This document shows, piece after piece, positions 27,697-56,973 of a stretch of DNA of 64,000 bases. Source of the stretch: Reyranella sp. CPCC 100927 (lineage in GTDB: Bacteria; Pseudomonadota; Alphaproteobacteria; Reyranellales; Reyranellaceae); the NCBI RefSeq assembly GCF_007859315.1, contig NZ_VOHA01000003.1:434001-498000 (forward strand), written 5' to 3'. Below the pieces are notes generated by a model. That model saw only the letters and a list, made by a program, of their open reading frames with translations. It was not told the DNA's origin and did no database searches. A program made the translations under genes and the position numbers. The first letter of the stretch is position 1, and each line of letters starts with the position of its first letter.

Positions 27697-29016
27697 ATGG
27701 CGATGGACGGTGACATCGGACAACAGCCGCGCGCCCGGCGACGGCAGGAGCGCCTCGTCACCGACGTGACTCCGGCGTCGGGAATCGTGGCGCGAGCCTA
27801 CCGGAGCATGCGCAGCCTGATGCCGCTGCGCCAGCGTCAGCTCGAGATCGACGCGGAATCGGGCCTGGCGCCGTTTCCCACGACACGGGGGCGTTTTCCG
27901 CTGGTGCTGGTCAGCTTCATCGCCTGCGTTGTCCTGCCGGCCTTGGCCGCTCAGATCTATTTCATCTTCATCGCGTCGGATCAGTACGTCGCCGAGGCGC
28001 ACGCCGTGGTGCGGTCGGCCGAGCAGGAATCGGCCGTCCAATCCGCCATGGCAAAGTCGGGATCGTCGGGAGCAGGGGCCAATTCCACGTCGGCGCTCTC
28101 GATGTCGACGCTCGGTCCCAACGCCTATGTCGTCACCAACTACATTCGCAGTCGCGCCGTAGTGGACGATCTTGCCAAGACGATGGATCTCCGCGCGATC
28201 TTCCGACGGCCGGAGGCCGATTTCTGGGCGCGATTGAAGAGCGACGCCAAGGTCGAGGATCTGGTCGATTATTGGAAGGACATGGTCACGACATATGTCG
28301 ATGGTCCCTCCGGCATCGTCACGGTGAAGATCCGCGCCTTTCGGCCTGATGATGCGCTGGCGCTGACGCGGGCCGTCCTCCAACTCAGCGAGCAGCTCGT
28401 CAACGAAATGTCGGATCGGGCGCGGCAAGACGCCATGCGCTTTGCCGAGCGCGAGGTGGAACGTGCGGATGGCCGGGTTCGTACGGCGCTGACGGACCTG
28501 CGCCGCTATCGGGATGACGAAGGCCTGATTGACCCGATCAAGACCGCCGATGAGACCGGGAAGCTGTTGTTGCAGCTTCTGGCGGAAAAGATACGGCTGG
28601 AAAGCGATCTCTTCGTCGCCTCACGATCATTGACCAGGAACGCTCCGTCGATCCAGAACATGACAGCTCGCCTCGAGATCACCGACGTGCAGATCGCGCA
28701 GCTGAAAGAGAAGATGACGGGGCAGAGCTCCGAGATCCGAAACATCGCGGCCAAACTGTCGAAGTTCGAGGAACTCGAGGTCCAGCGGCAGTTCTCGGAG
28801 CGGCTGTTCACCATGGCGCAGGATGGACTCGAACGGGCGCGCATGTCAGCCGAGCGACAAGCCGTCTATCTCACCGTTTTCGTGCCACCGTCACTGCCGG
28901 AAGATTCGCTCTATCCCCGCCGTGTCGCTTTCTCGATCCTGGCGCCGCTGGCGCTATTCGTTGTGTGGAGCATCGTCGCGCTGATCTGGGCCTCGGTGGA
29001 GGATCATCGGGTGTGA
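27697..29016 (+). CDS. KpsE-like capsule polysaccharide export inner-membrane protein, copy 1
   Basis: 439-residue polysaccharide co-polymerase of the KpsE/BexC type. It has a cytoplasmic basic N-terminus, a first membrane helix around residues 68-92 (LVLVSFIACVVLPALAAQIYF) and a large periplasmic part with long coiled-coil helices (~240-370). A second helix lies near the C-terminus (FSILAPLALFVVWSIVALIW). The conserved DQYVAEAHAVVR after helix 1 and PSLPEDSLYPRRVAF before helix 2 are family hallmarks. Such proteins bridge the KpsM/KpsT transporter and the outer-membrane exporter. It is separated from kpsM/kpsT by 20 kb; a paralogue lies next to them at 48.1-49.4 kb. Confidence 0.9.
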   Translation: MAMDGDIGQQPRARRRQERLVTDVTPASGIVARAYRSMRSLMPLRQRQLEIDAESGLAPFPTTRGRFPLVLVSFIACVVLPALAAQIYFIFIASDQYVAEAHAVVRSAEQESAVQSAMAKSGSSGAGANSTSALSMSTLGPNAYVVTNYIRSRAVVDDLAKTMDLRAIFRRPEADFWARLKSDAKVEDLVDYWKDMVTTYVDGPSGIVTVKIRAFRPDDALALTRAVLQLSEQLVNEMSDRARQDAMRFAEREVERADGRVRTALTDLRRYRDDEGLIDPIKTADETGKLLLQLLAEKIRLESDLFVASRSLTRNAPSIQNMTARLEITDVQIAQLKEKMTGQSSEIRNIAAKLSKFEELEVQRQFSERLFTMAQDGLERARMSAERQAVYLTVFVPPSLPEDSLYPRRVAFSILAPLALFVVWSIVALIWASVEDHRV

Positions 29017-29032
29017 GAAATTGGCGAGTGGA

Positions 29033-31684
29033 ATGTCCACGCAAGTTAAAGCCATGAAACTCCCGTCCACCCTATCTTCGCTGCGACGGATCGGGCAGCG
29101 CATCAAGCTGTCGCAAGAGCAACGGCTGATTGACGGGAGTGGCCTGTTCGACCGGACGTTCTACCGCGCGTCATATCCTGATGTAGCGCAGTCCGATCTC
29201 GATCCGGTACTTCACTACGCACTGCACGGTCATGAGGAGGGACGCAACCCATCCGCCGCATTCAATACGAAACAGTACAGACGACGGCACCGGTTGGCGG
29301 AGACCCAAAATCCGTTGATCCACTACATCAAGACCCGCCGTCGACGGAGAATCTCCAAGGCGCCATCCAGTCTGGAAGACATTGCGGCGTGGCAACTCGA
29401 GTCGGACGAGATCGAGCTCGCGACGCTTCCGCCGCCGGGTGAAATCGGCGTTTTCATTCACTTGTTCTACGATGATCTCGCCAAGGAAATACTCGCGCTT
29501 CTCGACAACATTCCGTATCCATATCGAGTCTATATTTCGACGGACACGACAGCGAAACAGCGCAGCATAGAAGTGGTCCTGGCTGAGCTTTCGTTAACCG
29601 AGAAAGCAGTCATCAAGGTTTTGCCCAATCGAGGATGGGACATTGGTCCTTTCCTTGTCGGTTTCGCCAGCGAGATCGCAAGCCATGACATTTGCCTCAG
29701 GCTGCAGGGCAAGAAGTCGACTTCCGAAGATCCGAAGTATGGCATCGAGTGGAGACGGCATATTTTCTCCGAACTCGTGGGGCATCCCATCCTCGTTCGC
29801 CGGATCGTATCGCTGTTGATGAGCTACGCCGACCTCGGCATCGTCATGCCGAGCCACTGGGACGGCATTTCGAGATGGCTGAGCGTCGGGAGCAATGTTG
29901 ATGCCATGCAATCCGTGCTCAGGCGACTGTCGGTGGACGTTCGGCTGCGCCGGGACCAGAAGGTCGAGTTTGCGAGCGGCTCGATGTACTGGTTCCGATC
30001 ACGGGCGCTTGGCCCGTTGCTCGACCTCAAGCTTGGCTGGGATGATTTTTCGCCGCCCGATGAAGGCGTGCGTGATGCAACGTTTGCGCACGGGATAGAG
30101 CGATCGCTGCTGTTCTGTGTCGCGAAAGGTGGCCTCCGCTGGTCGTTTTCGCCTGTGAAGCGGCTGTTGTCCGAGATGACAGAGCAGGTGTGCCAACAGA
30201 TTATCGAGCAGAGTGGCGCCTTCGACAAAGGCTACTACCTGGAGAAATACCGTGACGTCGCTCGCAATCAGTGGGATCCCGTCAAGCATTACGTCCACGA
30301 AGGTTGGAAAGATAACAGAAATCCTGCGCCTGATTTCAATGGGAGATACTACAAAGACCTGATCGAAAAGGCCGGCTATGTTGATGTCAATCCTTTGGTC
30401 CACTTTTTGATGGTGGGTCGCGCGCGCGGCCTTAGTGCACAGCGCAGGCTCGTGGGCCAGGCGACGATCGTCGTCGACGATCTGTACGGCGCCTACAGGC
30501 GTGCGGAGGATGCACCGACATACGTGCAGGAAACGACTCCCTCGATTCACCCCAGTGCTGTCAAGGCGATCGCCTTTTACCTGCCTCAGTTTCATCCCTT
30601 CGAGGAGAACAACCGCTTCTGGGGACGCGGATTTACCGAGTGGACCAATACGACCAAGGCGCAACCGATGTTCGAAGGGCATTACCAGCCGAGGTTGCCC
30701 GGTGAGCTTGGGTTCTATGATACGCGCATCAAGGACGTCATCAAACGGCAGATGGAATTGGCGCGACAGTACGGTATCCACGGCTTCTGCCTTCACCACT
30801 ATTTCCTGGAGGGCAGGCCCGTCATGCGCGTGCCCTACAATCACATCCTCGCGGACAAAAGCCTTGATCTGCCGTTTTGTTTACATTGGGCCAACGAGCC
30901 GTGGACGGCGCAATGGGACGGTGAAGCGCGGCAGCAGGGGACGCTTCTGACACAGCGTCATACGCCGGAAGACGATCTGGCCTTCTTCAAAGACATTGAG
31001 CCGGCGATCACCGATTCGAGATACATCACCGTGGACGGCAGACCGTTGCTGCTGATCTACCGGCCCAGCCTGTTTCCGAACATTAGGGCGACGGTCGAGC
31101 GATGGCAGGCATGTTGTCGGGCCATCGGTCTGCCGCCTCTATTCCTTGCCGCCATGCAGACGATATTCGACGGCGATGTGGATCCGCGGGCGTTCGGCTT
31201 CGATGCGGCTGTGGAGTTTCCACCGCACAACCTGCCAATCCCGAATGTTTCCGGATCAGTCAGTCTCTACGATCCAGGTTTCGAGGGAGCGATCTTCGAT
31301 TATCGGGCGGCCGTCGAAAAGGCTTTGGCCCGGCAGGCACCTTCGTACCCCTGTTTCCGGGGCATCGTGCCGGACTGGGATTGCACGCCGCGGCGTTCGA
31401 CCCCCGCCATGTTCATCAACAGTCACCCCGCGGTGTACAGGGAATGGTTGGAAAAGATCTGCGTGCAGACACATGACCGGCTTCCGGTTGACCGACAGTT
31501 CGTTTTCATCAACGCGTGGAACGAGTGGGCAGAGGGCGCATATCTTGAGCCCGACCGGAAGTACGGATATGCCTATCTACAAGCGACTGCTGATGCGTTG
31601 AACGGAGCGTCAAGGGCACCGCCGCGCATCGGCGCCGGGCGTGATCGGCCCGGCGTCGTACTGTCTGCTCAAGCTGGGGAGTAG
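29033..31684 (+). CDS. Multidomain glycosyltransferase: YPDV repeats, RgpF domain, WbsX domain
   Basis: 883-residue modular protein. Residues ~39-106: two copies of the 38-residue YPDV repeat. Residues ~135-370: rhamnan-synthesis protein F (RgpF) domain (GVFIHLFYDDLAKEIL; LPNRGWDIGPFLVGF). Residues ~397-470: two more repeats. Residues ~510-865: WbsX (GH99-like) domain with IAFYLPQFHPFEENNRFWG, GFTEWTNTTKAQP, HWANEPWTAQWDG and FINAWNEWAEGAYLEP. RgpF and WbsX proteins occur in rhamnose-rich glycan assembly, but their exact reactions are not settled. ATG 29033 was chosen over the TTG at 29021, with a weak GAGTGG upstream. It lies directly after the KpsE-like gene in the same operon. Confidence 0.88.
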   Translation: MSTQVKAMKLPSTLSSLRRIGQRIKLSQEQRLIDGSGLFDRTFYRASYPDVAQSDLDPVLHYALHGHEEGRNPSAAFNTKQYRRRHRLAETQNPLIHYIKTRRRRRISKAPSSLEDIAAWQLESDEIELATLPPPGEIGVFIHLFYDDLAKEILALLDNIPYPYRVYISTDTTAKQRSIEVVLAELSLTEKAVIKVLPNRGWDIGPFLVGFASEIASHDICLRLQGKKSTSEDPKYGIEWRRHIFSELVGHPILVRRIVSLLMSYADLGIVMPSHWDGISRWLSVGSNVDAMQSVLRRLSVDVRLRRDQKVEFASGSMYWFRSRALGPLLDLKLGWDDFSPPDEGVRDATFAHGIERSLLFCVAKGGLRWSFSPVKRLLSEMTEQVCQQIIEQSGAFDKGYYLEKYRDVARNQWDPVKHYVHEGWKDNRNPAPDFNGRYYKDLIEKAGYVDVNPLVHFLMVGRARGLSAQRRLVGQATIVVDDLYGAYRRAEDAPTYVQETTPSIHPSAVKAIAFYLPQFHPFEENNRFWGRGFTEWTNTTKAQPMFEGHYQPRLPGELGFYDTRIKDVIKRQMELARQYGIHGFCLHHYFLEGRPVMRVPYNHILADKSLDLPFCLHWANEPWTAQWDGEARQQGTLLTQRHTPEDDLAFFKDIEPAITDSRYITVDGRPLLLIYRPSLFPNIRATVERWQACCRAIGLPPLFLAAMQTIFDGDVDPRAFGFDAAVEFPPHNLPIPNVSGSVSLYDPGFEGAIFDYRAAVEKALARQAPSYPCFRGIVPDWDCTPRRSTPAMFINSHPAVYREWLEKICVQTHDRLPVDRQFVFINAWNEWAEGAYLEPDRKYGYAYLQATADALNGASRAPPRIGAGRDRPGVVLSAQAGE
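29147..29350 (+). repeat. YPDV repeats, two copies (second degenerate), N-terminal to RgpF
   Basis: Repeat 1 covers residues 39-76 (FDRTFYRASYPDVAQ, then DLDPVLHYALHGHEEGRNP). Repeat 2 (residues 77-106) keeps FNTKQY and NPLIHYI but loses the glycine-rich end. The unit is 38 residues (114 bases). Confidence 0.7.
30221..30442 (+). repeat. YPDV repeats, two copies, between the RgpF and WbsX domains
   Basis: FDKGYYLEKYRDVARNQWDP with HYVHEGWKDNRNPAP, then FNGRYYKDLIEKAGYVDVNP with HFLMVGRARG. Same unit as in the proteins at 31.7, 44.3 and 55.3 kb, here used as a linker between two catalytic-type domains. Confidence 0.7.
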
Positions 31685-31722: not shown

Positions 31723-34173
31723 ATGACGGCAGTACTGAGTCACCTGCTTGCGCCGTTCCGCAGACCCGACGTCGTAGACAATCCGCTCCTCGACAATGCC
31801 ATTGGCCGGCCACTCGCCAGCGCCCTGCATCGGCTCGCCAGCAGATACTGGTTGCGGCAGCAACGCCATTTGCTGTCACGTACGACTGCGCCGCTTCGTT
31901 TTGATGCCGAATGGTACTTGGCGCGCTATCGCGACGTACAGATGGCACGCGTTGATCCGCTCGTTCACTATCTTGAGCACGGCGTATCGGAAGGCCGCGA
32001 TCCTCATCCGCTGTTTCATGCTCCTTGGTATCTCTTTCAGACGGAGGCATCCGAGGAAATCAAGGCTAATCCGCTGGGACACTATTTGAAGGAAGGTGCA
32101 GCTCAGGGGCTTTCTCCCCATCCGCTCTTCGATCGCGAATACTATCGAAAGTCAAATCCGGACGTGGCCGCGAGCGGCATGGATCCGTTGACTCACTTTC
32201 TGCTTCATGGCGACAAGGAGAGGCGCTCGCCTCATCCGCTGTTCAATGCTGAATTCTACTTGAGAACCAATCCGGATATACGCGCGGAATCCGGTGCATT
32301 GCGTCACTACCTGACCAGTGGCGGTGCAGAAGGACGCTGGCCTCATCCAGTATTTGATGCACAGTACTATTTTCGGCTGTATCCGGAACTCGAGCGGGCG
32401 GCGAATCCGCTTGTTCACTATCTGATGCAATCGCTGGAGTTGCGGCGCCTACCGCATCCGCTCTTCGATGGGGGATATTTTCGGATGCTGTCTGCTCTCT
32501 CTCCGAGAGCGGCAATAGATCCGTTGGTGGACTACGTCGAGTGGCTTTCAAATGTTGATCCTGCTCTTGCCCGGGGCGGAATGACCTACAGCCTGCCCCC
32601 GATGCGAGAGTCGGTTCGTGACGATTCGCGATCCCCGCTCCAGAAGCAGCCACTCGTCTCCATCCTGATACCAACCTACAACTCAGACCGAGAGCTGCTG
32701 ACGGTGGCAGTGGACAGCGTGCGCGCGCAGACCTATCGGAACTGGGAGTTGGTCATCGTGGACGATGGTTCCCCGGCGGCGCACATGGGGCCGTTGCTGG
32801 AGATGCTCGCGGCCCGCGATCCGCGCATCAGGACAGCCAGGTTGTCACGCAACAGCGGCATCTCGGAGGCGACGAATGAGGCCCTCCGCCTGGCGAAGGG
32901 GGACTACATAGCCCTGGTTGATCACGATGACTTGCTGGTGCCGGAGGCGATCGAGGAGGTGCTGTACGCAATGGATGGCCAAGGTGCCGATGTGGCGTAC
33001 AGCGATCAGGCGTATAGCTCAGCCGAAGGAACCTTCGAGTCACCGTTCTATAAGCCAGACTGGTCTCCAACGCTGTTTGCCGGCGTCATGTATGTCGGGC
33101 ATCTCCTTGTTGTGCGTCGCGCGTTGGCCGTGGCAGTCGGCGGCTTCGACAAGGCTTATGATCGCGTGCAGGACTTCGAGTTCATGTTACGGGTCAGCGA
33201 GCGCGCCGACGAGATCGTCCATGTGCCAAGAATGCTGTATCACTGGCGACGCGCGCCGGGCAGCGTCGCCGCCGACGCCAACGCCAAGGGCAAGGTTGAG
33301 CCGGTACAGTGCAAGGCGGTCAATGCCCATTTCATGCGGACTGGCTTTCCCGCAGAGGCGACACCGCATCCGGACCTGCCACATCGCCTCACGATCAAGC
33401 CGAACAGTCGCCTGTCGTACCCGGACATAGAGGCCCTCGTTTGTGGCTGGAAGCGCCCATCAAACGCTGTTGCCGCGTGCGTCGCTCGACTCGAAGACAA
33501 GAGATCGCGGCTGGCAAATGTCCGCGTGATTTCCCCTCGGTCCGCTAGGGGGGCGCTGGAAAGTGGCGGCAGCCTGAACGCGCCGCTGGCCGATGCGCTG
33601 GCTGAAGCTCTCGACACTATGTCGTCTCGCTACCTCCTTTGGATCGATCCGCTCGTTCAGATCGATAATCCGCGTTGGCTGGACTATCTACTGCTGTATG
33701 CGGAACAGCCGGACGTCGCGTTCGTCGGTCCTCATTTGTATCACCGCGATGGTCGGGTCGGTGCCGCCGGGCTTGTGCTCGACAAAGCCGGGCTCTTGCC
33801 TGCCATGCCGGGTTTTCGGCTAGGTGACGACGGCTACGCGGGTGCGCTCGCCTGTGATCGGGAAGTATTCGCGTTGTATCCGGCCCTGATGATGATCGAT
33901 ACCGCCGTTCTGCGGACGCTTGGTGGGTTCGATCGGGCTTTCGTCTCGCCATACTATCTTTTCGGCGAGGCGGCTGCCCGCGCCGTATGGGCGGGCTATC
34001 GTAACATCGGAATCGCTACGGCGCTCACGACCGTGGATGGCGACTACCTGGCCATGCCGGCGGAGGCGGCCATCGATGCCATGCTTTTCCTGGAGAAGCA
34101 CGGAAGCAACAAGAACCTCGTTGATCCACGCTACAGTCCGAACTTTGCGTCCGGGAGAGCCGATTACACCTAG
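31723..34173 (+). CDS. GT2-family glycosyltransferase with N-terminal YPDV repeats
   Basis: 816 residues. Residues 60-247 hold five tandem YPDV repeats (a sixth is degenerate to ~280). Residues ~308-530 form a GT2 (GT-A fold) domain with VSILIPTYNSDRELL, LVIVDDGSP, the nucleotide-binding VDHDD and a C-terminal EFMLRVSERADEIVHVPRMLYHWR acceptor region. The last ~250 residues resemble a second, incomplete GT2 segment (LLWIDPLVQIDNPRWLDYLL; GPHLYHRDGRVGAAGLVL) without the first half of the fold. CGGAG lies 6 bases before the ATG. It follows the WbsX protein by 38 bases. Sugar specificity unknown. Confidence 0.9.
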   Translation: MTAVLSHLLAPFRRPDVVDNPLLDNAIGRPLASALHRLASRYWLRQQRHLLSRTTAPLRFDAEWYLARYRDVQMARVDPLVHYLEHGVSEGRDPHPLFHAPWYLFQTEASEEIKANPLGHYLKEGAAQGLSPHPLFDREYYRKSNPDVAASGMDPLTHFLLHGDKERRSPHPLFNAEFYLRTNPDIRAESGALRHYLTSGGAEGRWPHPVFDAQYYFRLYPELERAANPLVHYLMQSLELRRLPHPLFDGGYFRMLSALSPRAAIDPLVDYVEWLSNVDPALARGGMTYSLPPMRESVRDDSRSPLQKQPLVSILIPTYNSDRELLTVAVDSVRAQTYRNWELVIVDDGSPAAHMGPLLEMLAARDPRIRTARLSRNSGISEATNEALRLAKGDYIALVDHDDLLVPEAIEEVLYAMDGQGADVAYSDQAYSSAEGTFESPFYKPDWSPTLFAGVMYVGHLLVVRRALAVAVGGFDKAYDRVQDFEFMLRVSERADEIVHVPRMLYHWRRAPGSVAADANAKGKVEPVQCKAVNAHFMRTGFPAEATPHPDLPHRLTIKPNSRLSYPDIEALVCGWKRPSNAVAACVARLEDKRSRLANVRVISPRSARGALESGGSLNAPLADALAEALDTMSSRYLLWIDPLVQIDNPRWLDYLLLYAEQPDVAFVGPHLYHRDGRVGAAGLVLDKAGLLPAMPGFRLGDDGYAGALACDREVFALYPALMMIDTAVLRTLGGFDRAFVSPYYLFGEAAARAVWAGYRNIGIATALTTVDGDYLAMPAEAAIDAMLFLEKHGSNKNLVDPRYSPNFASGRADYT
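31900..32463 (+). repeat. Five tandem YPDV repeats in the GT2 protein
   Basis: Units of 38, 38, 38, 37 and 37 residues starting at F60, F98, F136, F174 and F211, each ending P-H-P-L/V. The best copy is FDREYYRKSNPDVAASGMDP with HFLLHGDKERRSPHPL. DNA copies have diverged, so the repetition is old at the nucleotide level. Confidence 0.85.
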
Positions 34174-44269: not shown

Positions 44270-44329
44270 AATGCGCAAAGGACGACTATTCACAGGCTTC
44301 CCTGGGCGCCTATGGGCAGAGGCATATCC

Positions 44330-46135
44330 ATGATTGCCGTTGATCGCTCGAAACCTTCGAAGCATGGAGGCTGGTTGGGACGGCATCTGCGGGAAATTCG
44401 TGCTCGGCGCCGACAGCGCGCTCTGTTCGATGCGGGCTGGTACCTTGAACAGAATGAGGATGTTGCCGCGGCTGGCGTGGACCCGTTTGCTCACTATCTG
44501 GAACACGGCTGGCGGGAGCAACGAGCCCCTCATCCCCTGTTTAGTACGAGTTGGTACCTCAGTAGAAATGAGGATGTTCTCTCTGCACGCTTGGAGCCAT
44601 TACGCCACTATCTGATGCATGGCTGGCGGGAAGGGCGGTCCCCCCATCCGCTCTTCGACGTGGGATGGTATTTGTCCCAGAACCCAGATGTTGCCGCATC
44701 CGGCGCTGAACCCTTGTTGCACTATCTGAAGCGCGGGTGGCGAGAGGCCCGTGCGCCACACCCATTGTTCGACGTTGCTCGGTACCTCGAGCGGTATCCA
44801 GACGTTGCTGCAGCGGGCCGCGAGCCCTTGTCCCACTATCTCCAGATGGGGTGGCGGGAAGGACGCGATCCTTGTGCCTTCTTTTTTCCGGCTTGGTACA
44901 GGAGTCAAAATCCGGACGTGATGTCGGCGGACACCGAGCCCTTTTCTCACTACCTCGCGACAGGCTGGAGGAAGGGGAGGGCACCACACCCCCTGTTCGA
45001 TGTTGAGTGGTACCTTGACCGGAACAAGGACGTTGCTATGGCGGGCAAGGAACCGCTGGCACATTATGTGACAAGTGGCTGGCTGGAGAAACGGCAGCCG
45101 AGCGCAGTGTATTCCCGTGTAGCGCCACGGGCGCTTGAAGTTGCCGGAAGCGCCGGGGTACGGCACCCAGTGGAGGATGTTTTCGAATACTTCCGAAGCC
45201 ACCGCGAGCTTCTCGAAGCTGAAACGTGGGCGATGCACGAAAATCATCCGGTGACGCGCTTGCGCTACGAGTTGATCGGATGTCGCAATGATTTCCGCGG
45301 CAAGAACGTTTGCCTGTTTGCCTGTCACTGTCCGGACGGGCGCATGGATCCGACGACGAATTTGATGCTGCGGTGGATCAGGAATTCAGGGTTCTCGGTG
45401 GTTTGCATTGTGGCGAACGGAAGCACGGTGAGCTTCGAGTACCCGGGTGACGATCCGGATCTTTGCTTTATCGTACGAGACAATGTCGGATACGACTTTG
45501 CTGGTTGGGCACTTGCGCTGTCTGTCTTGCCGACATTGTGGCTGGCAAACGCCGTCCTGTTTGCCAACGACAGTGTCTTCGGCCCGGTTGATTCACCGAC
45601 GAATGGGCTGATCCGTGATTCGCTTGCCTCGCCAGCAGATTGCGTAGCACTGACGGCGTCCCAACAGGAATCTCTTCATTTTCAGAGTTACTTCTTCCTG
45701 GTTAAGAGAAAGGTTCTGGAATCCTCCCACTTTCGGGCGTTTTGGGCCGCGGTTCGCGTCGTCAACGACCAGAGAAGAATTATCATGCAATACGAGATCA
45801 AATTACTCTCGGTTGTGATCATGTCCGGTGCGTCGTGCCATGTCGTTTTTCAGTCGCTTTGTGACAACTACGCGGACCCCATAAACCCTACACTGTATCA
45901 CTGGCGTGAGCTCATTGATGCAGGTTTCCCTTTCCTGAAGAAGCGTGTCGTAACGGACGACTTAGAGGTAGTTGATCGAAAAGGATGGCTCGACGTTATT
46001 CAGAATCCCGAATTGAGAAAACATCTGATGACCCATCTCACGCGGGGAGAGCAAGACGCACCATCAGCGAGTCTGCTTCGTACGCGGTCAGTGCACTCAC
46101 GACGCCAGAATGCTTCAGCGGCGACGGGGTACTGA
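44330..46135 (+). CDS. RgpF-domain protein with six tandem YPDV repeats
   Basis: 601 residues. A short basic N-terminus is followed by six perfect-length 38-residue YPDV repeats (residues 33-260). A linker and a C-terminal RgpF-type domain (~325-560) follow: NVCLFACHCPDGRMDPTTNL; FIVRDNVGYDFAGWALAL; LANAVLFANDSVFGPV. RgpF proteins are linked to rhamnan glycan synthesis but the reaction is not firmly established. ATG 44330 has AGAGG 7 bases upstream; ATG 44312 is in frame but less supported. The 3' end overlaps the convergent methyltransferase gene by 21 bases. This protein has the cleanest repeat array of the locus. Confidence 0.88.
   Translation: MIAVDRSKPSKHGGWLGRHLREIRARRRQRALFDAGWYLEQNEDVAAAGVDPFAHYLEHGWREQRAPHPLFSTSWYLSRNEDVLSARLEPLRHYLMHGWREGRSPHPLFDVGWYLSQNPDVAASGAEPLLHYLKRGWREARAPHPLFDVARYLERYPDVAAAGREPLSHYLQMGWREGRDPCAFFFPAWYRSQNPDVMSADTEPFSHYLATGWRKGRAPHPLFDVEWYLDRNKDVAMAGKEPLAHYVTSGWLEKRQPSAVYSRVAPRALEVAGSAGVRHPVEDVFEYFRSHRELLEAETWAMHENHPVTRLRYELIGCRNDFRGKNVCLFACHCPDGRMDPTTNLMLRWIRNSGFSVVCIVANGSTVSFEYPGDDPDLCFIVRDNVGYDFAGWALALSVLPTLWLANAVLFANDSVFGPVDSPTNGLIRDSLASPADCVALTASQQESLHFQSYFFLVKRKVLESSHFRAFWAAVRVVNDQRRIIMQYEIKLLSVVIMSGASCHVVFQSLCDNYADPINPTLYHWRELIDAGFPFLKKRVVTDDLEVVDRKGWLDVIQNPELRKHLMTHLTRGEQDAPSASLLRTRSVHSRRQNASAATGY
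44426..45109 (+). repeat. Six tandem 114-base units coding the YPDV repeat
   Basis: Six units of exactly 38 codons starting at F33, F71, F109, F147, F185 and F223. A typical unit reads FDVGWYLSQNPDVAASGAEP followed by LLHYLKRGWREARAPHPL. Period and reading frame are perfectly kept while the DNA copies differ at many positions, indicating selection on the protein. Confidence 0.92.
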
Positions 46136-48103: not shown

Positions 48104-49375
48104 CTACGCCATGTGATTGCGTACAAGGCTAATCGCCCCGCAGAAGGCGGCCCACACGACGAACCCCCCGCCAAGCGCCAGCGCAGTGAACAGGATCGGC
48201 CTGGGATAACGCGAGTCTTGCGGCACTGACGGGCGCACAAAGGTGGCGAGGTAGACGAGCTGCCGCTCACTCGTGATGCGCGCCACTTCGAGGGCGGCGG
48301 CGGCGGTCGCGTAGTGACGCTCTGCGATCCGGCGTTCCAGGTCCTGCTGGGCGAACTTGGTCAGGGATTCGGAGAGGACCTTGTCGTTGGGTGCCGTCGT
48401 GCTTGCCCGCTGGGTCGTCAGCCGGGCTTCCAGTTCCGCGATCTGGTCCGCCATCGCGTTGAGACGAGCGGTGAGGGTACGCATCTGTGGTGCGGATGCC
48501 GAGACGTACTTGCGCTGCGTCTCGTACTCTTGCTGCAGACGCAGGCGCTCGCCTTGCAGGGCCGTGATGAGGTCTGCCAAGGCCTTGCCCTGCTGGCCGG
48601 CATCGAGGGTTCCTTCGGTGTTGCGCACCTTCTGGAATTCGATGCGCGCCCGGCTGAGGCGTTCGGCGCTGCGCTCGAACTCGCGCTCGGCGTCAGCCAC
48701 GGTCGCCCGCATCATGCGGCCGTTCATATCGTTGACCAGCGCCTCGCTGAGCTCGATCACGGCATCGGCAATGCGCTTGGCGTCCTCGGGACTGAAAGCG
48801 CGCACGGTGAAATCCACGATGCCCGACTGGAGCTGGATGTTGAAATGCGTCTTGGACACCCAGTAGTCCACGACCTTCTCGATCGGCTTCTCGCGATTGA
48901 GGCGGGAGAACCAGTCGATATCGTCAGCACCGTAGAGGTTGCGCAAACCCAGTCGCTCTTCCAGGGCCTCCACGAGCGCGCGGCTCTCCATGTAGCTCGT
49001 CACCACCTGGGTGTCCTGGGCGATCTTGGCCAGGGGTATGCCCGTCAACGCGCCGACGCCATCGATCTTGGGGAGTTCGCCCGTGCGCACAGCAAACTTT
49101 GCTTCGGCGACATACTGCGGCGTGGCGATGAAGCCGAAATAGACTCCCGCTACCACGGTAGGCGCGACAACCAGCAATCCAAAGCTGACCAGGAAGACCA
49201 TCCGGAACAGGCGCGCATGGCGTCGCATCCGAATGGAGCCGGTTCCGAACGCCCGCCGGCTGCGCTTGGACATTTTGAGGCGGCGGGCGGTCTCGGCCAA
49301 GGAGCGCGACATCAGCTCCGCCCGGCGCACGGCAGGCGCCCTTTCGTCAGGGGGCGAAACCTCGTTGTCGCTCAT
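48104..49375 (-). CDS. KpsE-like capsule polysaccharide export inner-membrane protein, copy 2
   Basis: 423-residue polysaccharide co-polymerase of the KpsE type. It has a basic N-terminus, a first membrane helix at ~57-80 (FRMVFLVSFGLLVVAPTVVAG), the post-helix motif TPQYVAEAKFAVRTGEL, and long coiled-coil helices at ~210-355. RPSVPQDSRYPRPILF and a final helix (ALALGGGFVVWAAFCGAISLV) follow. It lies upstream of kpsT on the same strand in reading order (kpsT starts at 50200, ends 49547; this gene starts 172 bases further on), so it is probably the partner of this ABC exporter. It shares layout and several motifs with the copy at 27.7-29.0 kb. Confidence 0.9.
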   Translation of the reverse strand: MSDNEVSPPDERAPAVRRAELMSRSLAETARRLKMSKRSRRAFGTGSIRMRRHARLFRMVFLVSFGLLVVAPTVVAGVYFGFIATPQYVAEAKFAVRTGELPKIDGVGALTGIPLAKIAQDTQVVTSYMESRALVEALEERLGLRNLYGADDIDWFSRLNREKPIEKVVDYWVSKTHFNIQLQSGIVDFTVRAFSPEDAKRIADAVIELSEALVNDMNGRMMRATVADAEREFERSAERLSRARIEFQKVRNTEGTLDAGQQGKALADLITALQGERLRLQQEYETQRKYVSASAPQMRTLTARLNAMADQIAELEARLTTQRASTTAPNDKVLSESLTKFAQQDLERRIAERHYATAAAALEVARITSERQLVYLATFVRPSVPQDSRYPRPILFTALALGGGFVVWAAFCGAISLVRNHMA

Positions 49376-49546: not shown

Positions 49547-50200
49547 CTAGCGATTCAGCCGATTGTACACTTCAATGGCCTTGTCCACGGTATCAAACTG
49601 CATCAGGTGCCCGTCAACCAGGACAGCACCACGGCTACAGTAAGCCTTAATCGTGGCCATGGTATGTGAGACGACAATGACATCGGCTTTGGCGCGCCGC
49701 GCGGCGAAGGCCTCCTCGCAGCGTCGCTGGAAACGCATATCGCCGACGCCGGTGATCTCGTCGACCAGGTAGCATTCGAACTCGATGGCCATTGAGACGC
49801 CAAACGCCAAACGCGCCGCCATGCCTGAGGAATACGTGAGGACGGGGGCGTCGAGATAGTCGCCGAGCTCCGAGAAGTCCTCGACGAAACGCACCACCCG
49901 GCGGACATCTTCGCCATAAATGCGTGCGATGAATTTTATATTGTCCCGGCCGCTGACGTGGCCATGGAAACTGCCGCCGAAGCCCAGCGGCCAGGACACC
50001 CGGACATTGCTCCTAATGCGGCCGGCATTGGGCAGTTCGGTCCCCGCGATCAGCCGCAGCGTTGTCGATTTCCCGGCGCCATTCACGCCCAGCAGGCCAT
50101 ACGACCACCCGCTTTCGAAGACGGCCGAAACATGGTCGAGCACCACCTTCATGTGCTGCGGCGTCTTGTAGAACTTGTATACGTTCTGGAGCTGGATCAT
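49547..50200 (-). CDS. kpsT: Capsule polysaccharide ABC transporter ATPase KpsT
   Basis: 217-residue ATPase, the usual KpsT length: IQLQNVYKFYKTPQHMKVVLD, Walker A (GVNGAGKST), Q-loop region WPLGFGGSFHGHVSGRDN, signature YSSGMAARLAFGVSM and Walker B (ECYLVDEITGVGD). WPLGFGGSF is typical of capsule/O-antigen exporters. The frame continues upstream to 50269, but family homology begins at ATG 50200. Unlike the usual kpsM-kpsT operon, its permease partner is encoded divergently, 63 bases away. It powers export of the finished polysaccharide across the inner membrane. Confidence 0.95.
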   Translation of the reverse strand: MIQLQNVYKFYKTPQHMKVVLDHVSAVFESGWSYGLLGVNGAGKSTTLRLIAGTELPNAGRIRSNVRVSWPLGFGGSFHGHVSGRDNIKFIARIYGEDVRRVVRFVEDFSELGDYLDAPVLTYSSGMAARLAFGVSMAIEFECYLVDEITGVGDMRFQRRCEEAFAARRAKADVIVVSHTMATIKAYCSRGAVLVDGHLMQFDTVDKAIEVYNRLNR

Positions 50201-50263
50201 TTTCCCAGGAAATCTCGGTCGGCTTTCTGGCACGGCAGAACGCTGACCTAATACGGTAGGTCG

Positions 50264-51067
50264 ATGCACATCTCAACCGGTACCCATCAGTCGACACTCG
50301 CACTGCTGCGACTCCAGTTCCGTGTGATCGTCGCCATCATGCTGCGGGACATCCGGACCCGCTTCTTCGGGCATGGTTTGGGCTACCTGGTCATGATCGG
50401 ATGGCCCCTGGTTCACATCCTGATCCTGCTGGGCATCTACACACTGCTCGGCCGCGCCACGCCGTATGGCGAAAGCATGGCGCTGTTCTTTGCCACCGGA
50501 TTGGTGCCTTTCATGGCGTACAATTACATGTCCCGGTGGACGATGATCGCGTTGCTCTTCAACAAGTCGCTGCTGGCATTTCCGGTGATCAAGACCCTGG
50601 ATGTGCTACTGGCGCGTACAGTGCTCGAAGCGCTGGGCAATTTCTGCTCCGTGATCCTGCTGATATTCATTCTCTGGATGGTCGACATCGATTGCATGCC
50701 CATGGACATGGTCCAGGCGTGTTATGCGCTCGGCGCTGCGATGTTGCTGGGTGCCGGGTTCGGCATCGTGCACGGCATCATTGCCATGGCCATTCCCACG
50801 TGGGCGACCGGCTATGCGTTGGTCATTGTCTTCATGTACATGATCTCGGGCGTCTTCTTCGTGCCCAGCGCAATGCCAGAGACCCTGCGGTACCTCCTGT
50901 CGTTCAATCCCGTGCTCCAGACCGTCGAATGGATGCGCTCGGCGTATTATGAGGGCTATTCGACGATCCTCGACAGAAGCTACGCTGTCTGGTTCGGGCT
51001 GGTGCACGTTTCGCTGGGCCTGATCATCGAGCGCCTTGTTCGGGGTCACCTGCTGATGGCCCGATAG
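50264..51067 (+). CDS. kpsM: Capsule polysaccharide ABC transporter permease KpsM
   Basis: 267-residue ABC-2-type permease with about six hydrophobic segments and the KpsM-type motifs IMLRDIRTRFFGHGLGYLVMI, FFATGLVPFMAYN and YMISGVFFVPSAMPETLRYLLSFNPVLQTVEWMR-like C-terminal region (two consecutive segments). It forms the membrane channel for KpsT. It is divergent from kpsT with only 63 bases between the coding regions, so both promoters must overlap there. A two-domain GT2 gene follows 15 bases after its stop. Confidence 0.95.
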   Translation: MHISTGTHQSTLALLRLQFRVIVAIMLRDIRTRFFGHGLGYLVMIGWPLVHILILLGIYTLLGRATPYGESMALFFATGLVPFMAYNYMSRWTMIALLFNKSLLAFPVIKTLDVLLARTVLEALGNFCSVILLIFILWMVDIDCMPMDMVQACYALGAAMLLGAGFGIVHGIIAMAIPTWATGYALVIVFMYMISGVFFVPSAMPETLRYLLSFNPVLQTVEWMRSAYYEGYSTILDRSYAVWFGLVHVSLGLIIERLVRGHLLMAR

Positions 51068-55255: not shown

Positions 55256-56893
55256 TCAGCCGAGGCAAGCAACCTCGACGTGAGGGCCCGGCCTCCGACC
55301 CTCGCGGGCACCGTGACAGAGATAGTGCTCCAACGGATTGAGGCCGGCCTGCAGGACGTCAGGGTACGTCTCAAGATACCAGTGGCAGTCGAATAGCGGG
55401 TGAGGGTTGCGCAATTCGCGGGCGCCGAACTCCACGAAGTGGACGAGGGGGTTGCAGCCATTACCCGCGACGTCGGGATTTGTGGCGAGATACCACGACG
55501 TGTCGAACAATGGATGCGGATCACAGCCGGCCTGTGCCCCGTCGTGCAGGTAGTGCAGTAGCGGATTGTCGTCGGATTCGATCATGCTCTGCTCTGCGTA
55601 CCATTCGCAGTCGAATAGGGGATGCGGCGAGCGCCGCTCCCTGGCCCCGAAACGCAGAAAGTGCACCAGAGGATTGACGCCGCTTGCCGCAACGTCGGGA
55701 TTGCACTGGAGGTACCACGACGTGTCGAACAACGGGTGCGAGTCATATCCTTGGGCGGCGCCCATAAGGACATAGTGACGAAACGGATCGGCGCTCGACC
55801 GAGCGACGTCAGGGTACTTCTTCAGATACCAATCCCGGTCAAACAATGGCGCGACAGGGCCATGGCGCAGGCGCCGGTACATTGAGTTGCACTGGCGCCG
55901 CGCGACGAGAAGGGTATTGCCTGCCTTGTAGGACCAAGACCCTTTCAGAAAGCTCACCTCAGCGTCCAGCACGCCCTGCCGGCTGGACGTTTCCTTGAGA
56001 TCGCGGGTCAGGATGGCGATGTTTACATCTCTTTGCCCAATGACGCTGCGCTGCTGCTCGATTTCCTTCGACCGCGCCTCGATCTCCGCCGATTGACGCT
56101 CGATCTCCTTCAGCTGCCGATTGATCTCATGTGATTGTTGATGACTTTGTTCTTGGGCCGCATGCAGTGATGCCTCGAGTTGCCCGATGCGCGAATCGCG
56201 ATCGGTAACCTCCGCAACCCTCCGAGCTTCCAGGTGCCCGATGCTTGCGGTGCAATCGGTGAGAAGGCGCATGTCTTCCGTAAACTCTTCCGCCTTGATC
56301 CGTTGATGGTTGATTCCATCGTATATGTTCCGGCAAGGAGTGCTGTCGTATACACGCCCTGGGGGCACCGGATGGGGGTGGTCGCCGTCCCGGCGGAACA
56401 CGGCCGCGAAGTCATTCCAGGTATCGCTTGCACGTTCTGCGATAAACGACTCGATTAACGTGGCTGGCCAGCGCTCACTCTTCGTGAGCGCCTCCAATGC
56501 CGTGCCCGCATCAGGATAGAATCGCCAGCAGTCGACCGGGAAGCCGTGAACCTTCCCGTTTGATGGCGCATTGATGTAGATGTAGCCGCCCGGCTTCGTG
56601 ATACGGCACAGATTGTTGAATGTCCGCCAGAACTGCGGGTCGTGTTCAAAGACCGAGCTTGCCATCGCGACGTCAGCGACGCCGTCCCTCAGTGGCATGT
56701 CTGCGCCCGGGGCCGTCACAAGATCAACACCGCGGCCGGGTTCGATATCGATGCCAATGTAGTGGGACCCTGGTGGCGCAACGGCTCGCAATGACCCGTT
56801 GACGTCCATCGATCCGATTTCGACGATCGTGCAGCGCTGCGGCGCATATACCTCGAAGAACAGTTTCCCGATTGCGAGGGCGGTATCATGCAT
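55256..56893 (-). CDS. Methyltransferase with coiled coil and five YPDV repeats
   Basis: 545-residue chimera. The N-terminal ~200 residues are a SAM-dependent methyltransferase (CTIVEIGSMDVNGSLRAVAP; YIGIDIEPGRGVDLV; VAMASSVFEHDPQFWRTFNNL; GGYIYINAPSNG). Residues ~215-330 are highly charged heptad-type helices rich in E, Q, R and S (EINRQLKEIERQSAEIEAR), a coiled coil. The last ~190 residues are five YPDV repeats. A methyltransferase carried on a coiled coil recalls WbdD, the capping and chain-length ruler of ABC-exported O-antigens, although no kinase domain is seen. ATG 56893 was chosen; GTG 56914 is in frame upstream. It is the only repeat protein on the minus strand. Confidence 0.87.
   Translation of the reverse strand: MHDTALAIGKLFFEVYAPQRCTIVEIGSMDVNGSLRAVAPPGSHYIGIDIEPGRGVDLVTAPGADMPLRDGVADVAMASSVFEHDPQFWRTFNNLCRITKPGGYIYINAPSNGKVHGFPVDCWRFYPDAGTALEALTKSERWPATLIESFIAERASDTWNDFAAVFRRDGDHPHPVPPGRVYDSTPCRNIYDGINHQRIKAEEFTEDMRLLTDCTASIGHLEARRVAEVTDRDSRIGQLEASLHAAQEQSHQQSHEINRQLKEIERQSAEIEARSKEIEQQRSVIGQRDVNIAILTRDLKETSSRQGVLDAEVSFLKGSWSYKAGNTLLVARRQCNSMYRRLRHGPVAPLFDRDWYLKKYPDVARSSADPFRHYVLMGAAQGYDSHPLFDTSWYLQCNPDVAASGVNPLVHFLRFGARERRSPHPLFDCEWYAEQSMIESDDNPLLHYLHDGAQAGCDPHPLFDTSWYLATNPDVAGNGCNPLVHFVEFGARELRNPHPLFDCHWYLETYPDVLQAGLNPLEHYLCHGAREGRRPGPHVEVACLG
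55280..55843 (-). repeat. Five tandem YPDV repeats at the C-terminus of the methyltransferase
   Basis: Units of 38, 38, 36, 38 and 38 residues. Examples: FDTSWYLQCNPDVAASGVNP with LVHFLRFGARERRSPHPL, and FDCHWYLETYPDVLQAGLNP with LEHYLCHGAREGRRPGPH. The third unit lacks two residues and its PDV motif. Confidence 0.88.
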
Positions 56894-56973
56894 CGTTCTG
56901 CTCGCCAGTTGCACGTCTCAAGGTGATGAAAAGCTAATGTGTTCGACGGCTTGCGACCAGTAGCACCGAAACG

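What the first reader, a model, noticed from the sequence alone, without database searches (positions are those of the whole stretch)
55256..56893. Methyltransferase + coiled coil + repeats: a possible WbdD-like chain-length ruler without a kinase
In E. coli O9a the WbdD protein caps the glycan by methyl/phosphate transfer and its coiled coil sets chain length before ABC export. Here an ABC-exported polysaccharide locus encodes a methyltransferase on a charged ~115-residue helical stalk, followed by five repeat units shared with the glycosyltransferases. The parallel in architecture and context is inference; the kinase domain of WbdD is not seen, so capping would be methyl only.
Basis: partly seen in the sequence, partly recalled or inferred. 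Interest (0 to 1): 0.65.

Follow-up and report, generated by a model that had tools for sequence, protein, structure and literature searches.

The report
Stalked methyltransferase in capsule export locus
This bacterial gene encodes a methyl-adding enzyme on a rigid stalk with a repeat tail, a layout also found beside capsule exporters in E. coli, Burkholderia and sphingomonads, and it may act as a cap-and-ruler that sets the length of capsule chains, a pathway for which I found no such ruler described.

Summary
The ORF (55256-56893, minus strand, 545 aa) is a class I SAM methyltransferase, one continuous helix (residues 206-302, coiled-coil core 238-288), a short SW helix, and five 38-residue repeats shared with locus glycosyltransferases. 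There is no kinase.

The WbdD reading is partly supported. The head has no specific homology to WbdD. The exporter is Kps-type: KpsT lacks the carbohydrate-binding domain of characterised terminator systems, no Wzt_C exists in the genome, and a KpsS gene lies 6.6 kb beyond the window. "Without a kinase" is not new: E. coli O8 WbdD is methyl-only.

What I found: methyltransferase-stalk-repeat proteins recur next to kps genes in Erythrobacter, Novosphingobium, Sphingomonas, Burkholderia and E. coli group 3 capsule clusters. Heads are swapped (two methyltransferase families, a sulfotransferase); stalks vary (136-454 aa in this head family, 448-544 in E. coli) even where heads are 83-99% identical; the SW[RK]xT motif ending the stalk in several also ends WbdD's coiled coil. 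A published E. coli K96 screen implies the gene in that position is needed for capsule. Most likely a terminator/ruler-like protein of Kps capsules (0.45); a tethered decorating methyltransferase is the main rival (0.35).

The parts
55256..56893 (-). ORF of the finding, 545 aa from ATG (552 aa if GTG at 56914)
56294..56893 (-). class I SAM-dependent methyltransferase head, residues 1-200
   Evidence: Pfam PF08241 34 bits; AlphaFold; Foldseek/VIA
55988..56278 (-). stalk: one continuous predicted helix, residues 206-302 (about 14 nm)
   Evidence: AlphaFold
56030..56182 (-). coiled-coil core, residues 238-288
   Evidence: COILS-type score with shuffle control
55862..55945 (-). stalk-end SW region and helix 329-344 (degenerate form of the SW[RK]xT motif that ends the stalk in several relatives and in WbdD)
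55730..55843 (-). repeat unit 1 (residues 351-388)
55616..55729 (-). repeat unit 2 (389-426)
55508..55615 (-). repeat unit 3 (427-462, two residues short)
55394..55507 (-). repeat unit 4 (463-500)
55280..55393 (-). repeat unit 5 (501-538)
49547..50269 (-). KpsT-type ABC ATPase, 240 aa, no C-terminal carbohydrate-binding domain
50264..51067 (+). KpsM-type ABC permease
48104..49375 (-). KpsE/BexC/CtrB family protein
   Evidence: NCBIfam TIGR01010
27697..29016 (+). second KpsE/BexC/CtrB family protein
   Evidence: NCBIfam TIGR01010
22804..24087 (-). polysaccharide export outer-membrane protein (Wza/KpsD/VexA type)
31723..34173 (+). GT2 protein with N-terminal repeats of the same family: candidate docking partner
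29021..31684 (+). RgpF + WbsX (GH99-like) protein with the same repeats
44312..46135 (+). six repeats + RgpF domain

Best explanation
The protein is a head-stalk-anchor-repeat component of a KpsMT-type capsule assembly machine. The head is a SAM-dependent methyltransferase (shown by sequence and predicted fold). The stalk is a long coiled-coil helix (predicted) that holds the head roughly 14 nm from a short helix near the membrane (inferred). The C-terminal 38-residue repeats dock the protein to glycosyltransferases of the same locus that carry the same repeats (inferred from distribution and from a natural fusion). I think it most likely that the head methylates the non-reducing end of the growing chain once the chain can reach it, so that stalk length sets a minimum chain length, as in WbdD. 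Unlike in WbdD systems, the exporter lacks a module to recognise the cap, so capping would stop elongation or release the chain rather than act as an export ticket. Substrate, terminal position and ruler action are all inference.
For: Methyltransferase, coiled coil and repeats confirmed. The architecture recurs: same head plus coiled coil plus one terminal repeat in Erythrobacter, Novosphingobium, Sphingomonas and Burkholderia. In all eight genomes checked with head plus coiled coil (seven with the terminal repeat), KpsC/KpsS-family genes lie on the same contig, about 6-23 kb away; a kpsT homologue lies in the fetched DNA of seven of the eight, and in B. seminalis the gene starts 29 bp after the kpsT match. 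E. coli group 3 clusters have kpsD-M-T-E followed by a methyltransferase of another family with a 448-544-aa stalk, SW[KR]xTAPVR and two repeats, then a dual-GT2 or WbsX/RgpF protein, three of which were seen to have N-terminal repeats. Azospirillum fuses a methyltransferase, a stalk, eight repeats and a GT2-type domain in one chain next to Wzt. Rhizobiales PAR1 splits it: a coiled-coil-plus-two-repeats ORF abuts a head-only ORF, next to kpsM/T/E. Stalk length is labile while heads are not: Burkholderia heads 83% identical with stalks of 454 and 381 aa, E. coli heads 99% identical with stalks of 448 and 544 aa. WbdD itself ends its coiled coil with SWRMT. The coiled-coil length variation of E. 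coli group 3 methyltransferases is noted in PMC13171606. In a K96 TnSeq screen all kps-locus genes except k96-09 and rmlB appeared needed for capsule (PMC13410964); by gene order k96-05 is the methyltransferase (my inference from L049), while K96 is described as glucuronic acid and rhamnose.
Against: No Wzt_C carbohydrate-binding domain in this genome or in the genomes of the seven repeat-bearing relatives, whereas the characterised terminator systems have one (PMC11231755). The Haemophilus influenzae b capsule, also ABC-exported, has no terminating residue (PMC11231755). Several relatives of the head have no stalk. The window encodes several other methyltransferases, which fits ordinary decoration. 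A stalk-repeat paralogue in this genome (contig C5) stands outside any evident polysaccharide locus. The repeats also occur in plasmid proteins annotated M10 metallopeptidase and Ig-like, so they are not specific to glycan assembly. The TnSeq result may reflect polarity in a long operon. Variable stalk length is also what an unconstrained tether would show.
Confidence: 0.45

Rival explanations
1. A tethered decorating methyltransferase: it O-methylates internal sugars of the repeat unit. The coiled coil and repeats only hold it in the glycosyltransferase complex and give it reach; stalk length has no effect on chain length.
For: The locus encodes several methyltransferases; head-only relatives occur, one of them next to KpsM/KpsT/KpsE; no cap-recognition module exists; stalk length drifts freely.
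Against: The same stalk-and-repeat layout carries unrelated heads, including a sulfotransferase; the K96 polymer is described as glucuronic acid and rhamnose, yet the gene in this position appears needed for encapsulation (PMC13410964; gene identity inferred).
Confidence: 0.35
2. A scaffold in which the methyltransferase is secondary: an oligomeric coiled coil with repeats that gathers glycosyltransferases under the ABC transporter. Loss abolishes capsule because the complex falls apart.
For: Stalk-plus-repeat ORF without a recognised head in PAR1; fused stalk-repeat-GT proteins; TnSeq requirement in K96 (PMC13410964).
Against: Head residues are conserved: 32 invariant columns across 20 sequences, and PAR1 keeps the head as the adjacent gene. 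Scaffolding need not exclude a terminator role.
Confidence: 0.14
3. A true WbdD orthologue that caps an O-antigen for CBM-gated export.
For: Methyltransferase plus coiled coil near ABC transporter genes; in Pseudomonas sp. Bc-h a relative with the same head and a coiled coil lies within 50 bp of a Wzt_C domain.
Against: No specific homology to WbdD; KpsT without CBM and no Wzt_C in the genome; KpsS present.
Confidence: 0.03

Closest known systems
WbdD of E. coli O9a / O8 (Klebsiella O3 / O5)
   Same: N-terminal class I methyltransferase, coiled coil of about 120 residues in O9a-type HS WbdD, SW motif at the stalk end, then a tail that in WbdD recruits the polymerase; the O8 form is methyl-only
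   Different: Head not specifically homologous; no kinase; tail made of 38-residue repeats; exporter is KpsMT without a CBM; capsule-type locus with KpsS
Putative coiled-coil methyltransferases of E. coli group 3 capsule clusters (K96-like and plasmid-borne types)
   Same: Methyltransferase head, coiled coil of variable length, SW motif (degenerate here), same 38-residue repeats, neighbours KpsD/E/M/T and repeat-bearing GT2 or WbsX/RgpF proteins
   Different: Their head is Methyltransf_24, here Methyltransf_11 type. Their stalk is 448-544 aa with two repeats; here 97-136 aa with five repeats. In this genome a Methyltransf_24 version exists as an orphan on contig C5
WbbB (Klebsiella O12) and ORF6 of Klebsiella O7
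   Same: Terminator-coiled coil-polymerase order in one chain, as in the Azospirillum fusion of methyltransferase, stalk, repeats and GT2-type domain
   Different: Different heads; no 38-residue repeats are described in the passages I read

Membership tests
WbdD terminators | Methyltransferase head homologous to WbdD | tested here: not met
   BLASTP E 0.067 over general methyltransferase motifs; hhalign probability 4.5; both are class I methyltransferases
WbdD terminators | Kinase domain (O9a type) | tested here: not met
   No kinase in the Pfam scan of the ORF, whereas HS WbdD scores APH/Pkinase. The O8 homologue is methyltransferase-only (PMC3482155), so this alone does not exclude
WbdD terminators | Extended coiled coil after the catalytic domain | tested here: met
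   WbdD coil for comparison
WbdD terminators | Membrane-associated helix and polymerase recruitment site after the coil | tested here: inconclusive
   Helix 329-344 and SW region predicted; motif shared by relatives and WbdD; membrane binding and recruitment not testable here
WbdD terminators | Partner ABC ATPase with C-terminal carbohydrate-binding module | tested here: not met
   KpsT is 240 aa with ABC_tran only; no PF14524 match in the genome
WbdD terminators | Caps the non-reducing end and sets chain length | not testable with these tools
   Needs mutants and glycan analysis
KpsMT/KpsCS capsule (group 2/3 type) locus | KpsM, KpsT, KpsE and an outer-membrane export protein | tested here: met
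KpsMT/KpsCS capsule (group 2/3 type) locus | KpsS | tested here: met
   G000:C23:504722-505642, 6.7 kb right of the window; NCBIfam KpsS model E 7.6e-67 over its full length, though below its curated cut-off
KpsMT/KpsCS capsule (group 2/3 type) locus | KpsC | tested here: not met
   Only one PF05159 match in the 99.3%-complete genome, and it fits KpsS
E. coli group 3 capsule methyltransferase architecture | Methyltransferase + coiled coil + 38-residue repeats near kpsD/E/M/T | tested here: met
E. coli group 3 capsule methyltransferase architecture | Methyltransf_24 head | tested here: not met
   Target head is Methyltransf_11 type; the C5 paralogue has the Methyltransf_24 head

The most novel reading that the evidence does not exclude
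KpsMT/KpsCS capsule pathways, including E. coli group 3, use a stalked terminator with an interchangeable head (methyl or sulfo transfer) whose coiled-coil length sets capsule chain length and whose C-terminal repeats dock it to repeat-bearing polymerases, without any cap-recognition module on the exporter.
Probability: 0.35. Interest if true: 0.8.

Novelty: new variant of a known kind. Interest (0 to 1): 0.58.

Why it matters
How ABC-exported capsules of the Kps type control chain length is not explained in the sources I could read: a 2025 review of capsule chain length describes KpsS/KpsC anchoring for these systems, and the passages I read offer no ruler (PMC12220298). If this protein class is a ruler, the coiled-coil length differences already present between near-identical E. 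coli and Burkholderia alleles are a natural experiment, and the repeat module becomes a recognisable tag for members of the assembly complex. The repeat itself has no Pfam name and no PDB fold match in the searches run here.

Tried and rejected
WbdD orthology by BLASTP and hhalign: rejected. A PDB relative of the repeats by sequence and by fold: none found, which does not prove a new fold. A profile of the head family found only a generic methyltransferase in the PDB (3l8d). The first full alignment mixed repeats with heads and was replaced by separate alignments. The ruler paper for WbdD (PMC4650267) is not held; its result is taken from PMC11231755. A literature search for the repeat by motif found nothing; searches for a ruler in Kps capsules found no such proposal in the held library. 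In several next-gene reads the position I gave fell in another frame, so N-terminal repeats are claimed only where they were seen. The SW motif count is small and taken from loci chosen for such proteins, so it is a lead, not a statistic.

Full report
The observation. Its first 200 residues score as a SAM methyltransferase in Pfam, AlphaFold models them mostly with high confidence apart from a dip near residues 111-130, and Foldseek and VIA-align return ordinary class I methyltransferases. Across 20 relatives 32 columns are invariant, so the head is probably an active enzyme; its substrate is unknown. AlphaFold extends this to one helix, 206-302, followed by a low-confidence linker and a second helix at 329-344. 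Five repeats of 38 residues follow (one of 36), 49% identical on average against 23% for shuffled units. A separate model of the repeats is confident (pLDDT 90.7): each unit is mainly short helices with small bridges. No PDB chain matches by sequence or fold, and the Pfam scan gives them no name.

The locus. The transporter genes are of the Kps type: KpsT (49547-50269) is 240 aa with nothing after the ATPase domain, KpsM (50264-51067), two KpsE-family proteins and a Wza/KpsD/VexA-type protein. A KpsS-like gene lies 6.6 kb right of the window, next to polyketide-synthase-type and aminotransferase-type genes. There is no Wzt_C domain anywhere in the genome, and only one PF05159 match, so KpsC was not found. 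In this genome the repeats occur in six proteins: the target, three further window proteins with glycosyltransferase-type domains, a glycosyltransferase-like protein on contig C2, and a Methyltransf_24-stalk-repeat protein on contig C5.

Relatives. A scan of GTDB genomes with the head found 21 loci. Some encode the head alone, some head plus short coil, and seven encode head, long coil and one terminal repeat: Erythrobacter (two), Novosphingobium (two), Sphingomonas montana and Burkholderia (two). Those seven and one head-plus-coil genome (Sphingomonas vulcanisoli) all carry KpsC/KpsS-family genes on the same contig within about 6-23 kb and no Wzt_C. The fetched DNA holds kpsT and kpsE homologues close by in six of the seven repeat-bearing loci, and kpsD, kpsM and kpsT in the seventh (L025); in S. 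vulcanisoli the fetched DNA shows no such neighbour. The one relative in this set whose genome has Wzt_C is Pseudomonas sp. Bc-h; there the domain lies within 50 bp of a protein that joins the same head and a coiled coil to RgpF-type sequence. So the head-and-coil pair is found beside both kinds of exporter.

E. coli. A tblastn of plasmid records led to E. coli capsule clusters of the group 3 layout. Directly after kpsD-M-T-E they encode a methyltransferase with a Methyltransf_24 head, a stalk of 448-544 residues, SW[KR]xTAPVR and two repeats; chromosomal clusters next to the type II secretion genes have the same layout. Similar DNA is found in 66 of 5,426 E. coli genomes. The following gene is a dual GT2 protein or a WbsX-RgpF protein, with N-terminal repeats seen directly in three of the four. 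PMC13171606 remarks in its methods that the coiled-coil regions of the putative methyltransferases in many group 3 clusters vary in length. In the K96 screen of PMC13410964 all locus genes except k96-09 and rmlB appeared to be needed for capsule; counting genes in the matching locus L049 makes k96-05 the methyltransferase. That identification, and the exclusion of polar effects, are inference and not shown.

Modularity. In Azospirillum a Methyltransf_24 head, a stalk, eight repeats and a GT2-type domain form one chain next to a Wzt with Wzt_C. In E. coli KTa005 a sulfotransferase head, a stalk with heptad-like repeats (by inspection; the coil score did not flag it), SWRITKPLR, repeats, WbsX, GT2 and GT4 domains form one chain next to a 461-aa ABC ATPase that I take by its length to be Wzt-like. 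In Rhizobiales PAR1 the stalk with two repeats is one gene and the head is the adjacent one. Heads change; the stalk-plus-repeat part stays. WbdD of E. coli HS, fetched for comparison, has its own SWRMT exactly at the end of its second coil segment. In the loci held here the motif occurs in 4 of 60 distinct ORFs with a predicted coil, always at the coil end, and in 5 of 639 without; the numbers are small and the loci were chosen for such proteins.

Stalk length. From the end of the head to the first repeat the target has 136 residues; relatives have 246-454. Two Burkholderia proteins with heads 83% identical differ by 73 residues, and two E. coli plasmid proteins with heads 99% identical differ by 96. 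A ruler predicts different chain lengths for these; a passive tether predicts nothing. No chain-length data are available to me.

Interpretation. The layout - catalytic head, coiled coil, stalk-end helix, then a tail shared with or fused to the polymerases - is that of the terminator proteins described in PMC11231755 and PMC3482155, and I rate a terminator/ruler role most likely (0.45). Two facts hold it back. In all terminated O-antigens discussed in PMC11231755 the exporter carries a module that reads the cap, and here it does not; and the same source states that the H. influenzae b capsule, also ABC-exported, has no terminating residue. A decorating methyltransferase tethered to the complex explains most observations too (0.35). 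It is not a member of the WbdD family by homology. What is new, as far as the held literature shows, is the recurrence of the architecture in Kps-type capsule loci and its link to a shared repeat.

Limits. The COILS matrix came from memory. The repeat-docking idea rests on distribution and fusions only, and the same repeats occur in plasmid proteins annotated M10 metallopeptidase and Ig-like, so a glycan-binding or other role is open.

Noticed in passing
L002:730-2550 (G000:C5:176142-177083); L013: Orphan paralogue: Methyltransf_24 head, coiled coil and six repeats, with no polysaccharide genes recognised nearby.
   Followed up: partly
L008/L003 (G000:C27:17220-18187): Second copy of the head plus short coil in this genome appears split between two frames (frameshift or sequencing error).
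   Followed up: no
L012:6623-7942 and L012:2-5814: KpsS-like gene beside polyketide-synthase-type and aminotransferase-type genes just right of the window, resembling rkp-1/Wcb-type lipid-anchor clusters (from memory).
   Followed up: partly
whole genome G000: KpsS family present but no KpsC found with PF05159, unlike the repeat-bearing relatives checked.
   Followed up: partly
window 27697-29016 and 48104-49375: Two KpsE/BexC/CtrB family genes in one locus.
   Followed up: no
L046:10588-15951: E. coli plasmid protein of 1787 aa: sulfotransferase head, heptad-like stalk, SWRITKPLR, repeats, WbsX, GT2 and GT4, next to a 461-aa ABC ATPase.
   Followed up: partly
L062:4687-6597; L063:4750-6660: The 38-residue repeats also occur in proteins annotated M10 metallopeptidase and Ig-like.
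   Followed up: no
L029:7895-9001: PAR1: coiled coil plus two repeats as a separate ORF abutting the head-only methyltransferase and kpsM/T/E.
   Followed up: yes
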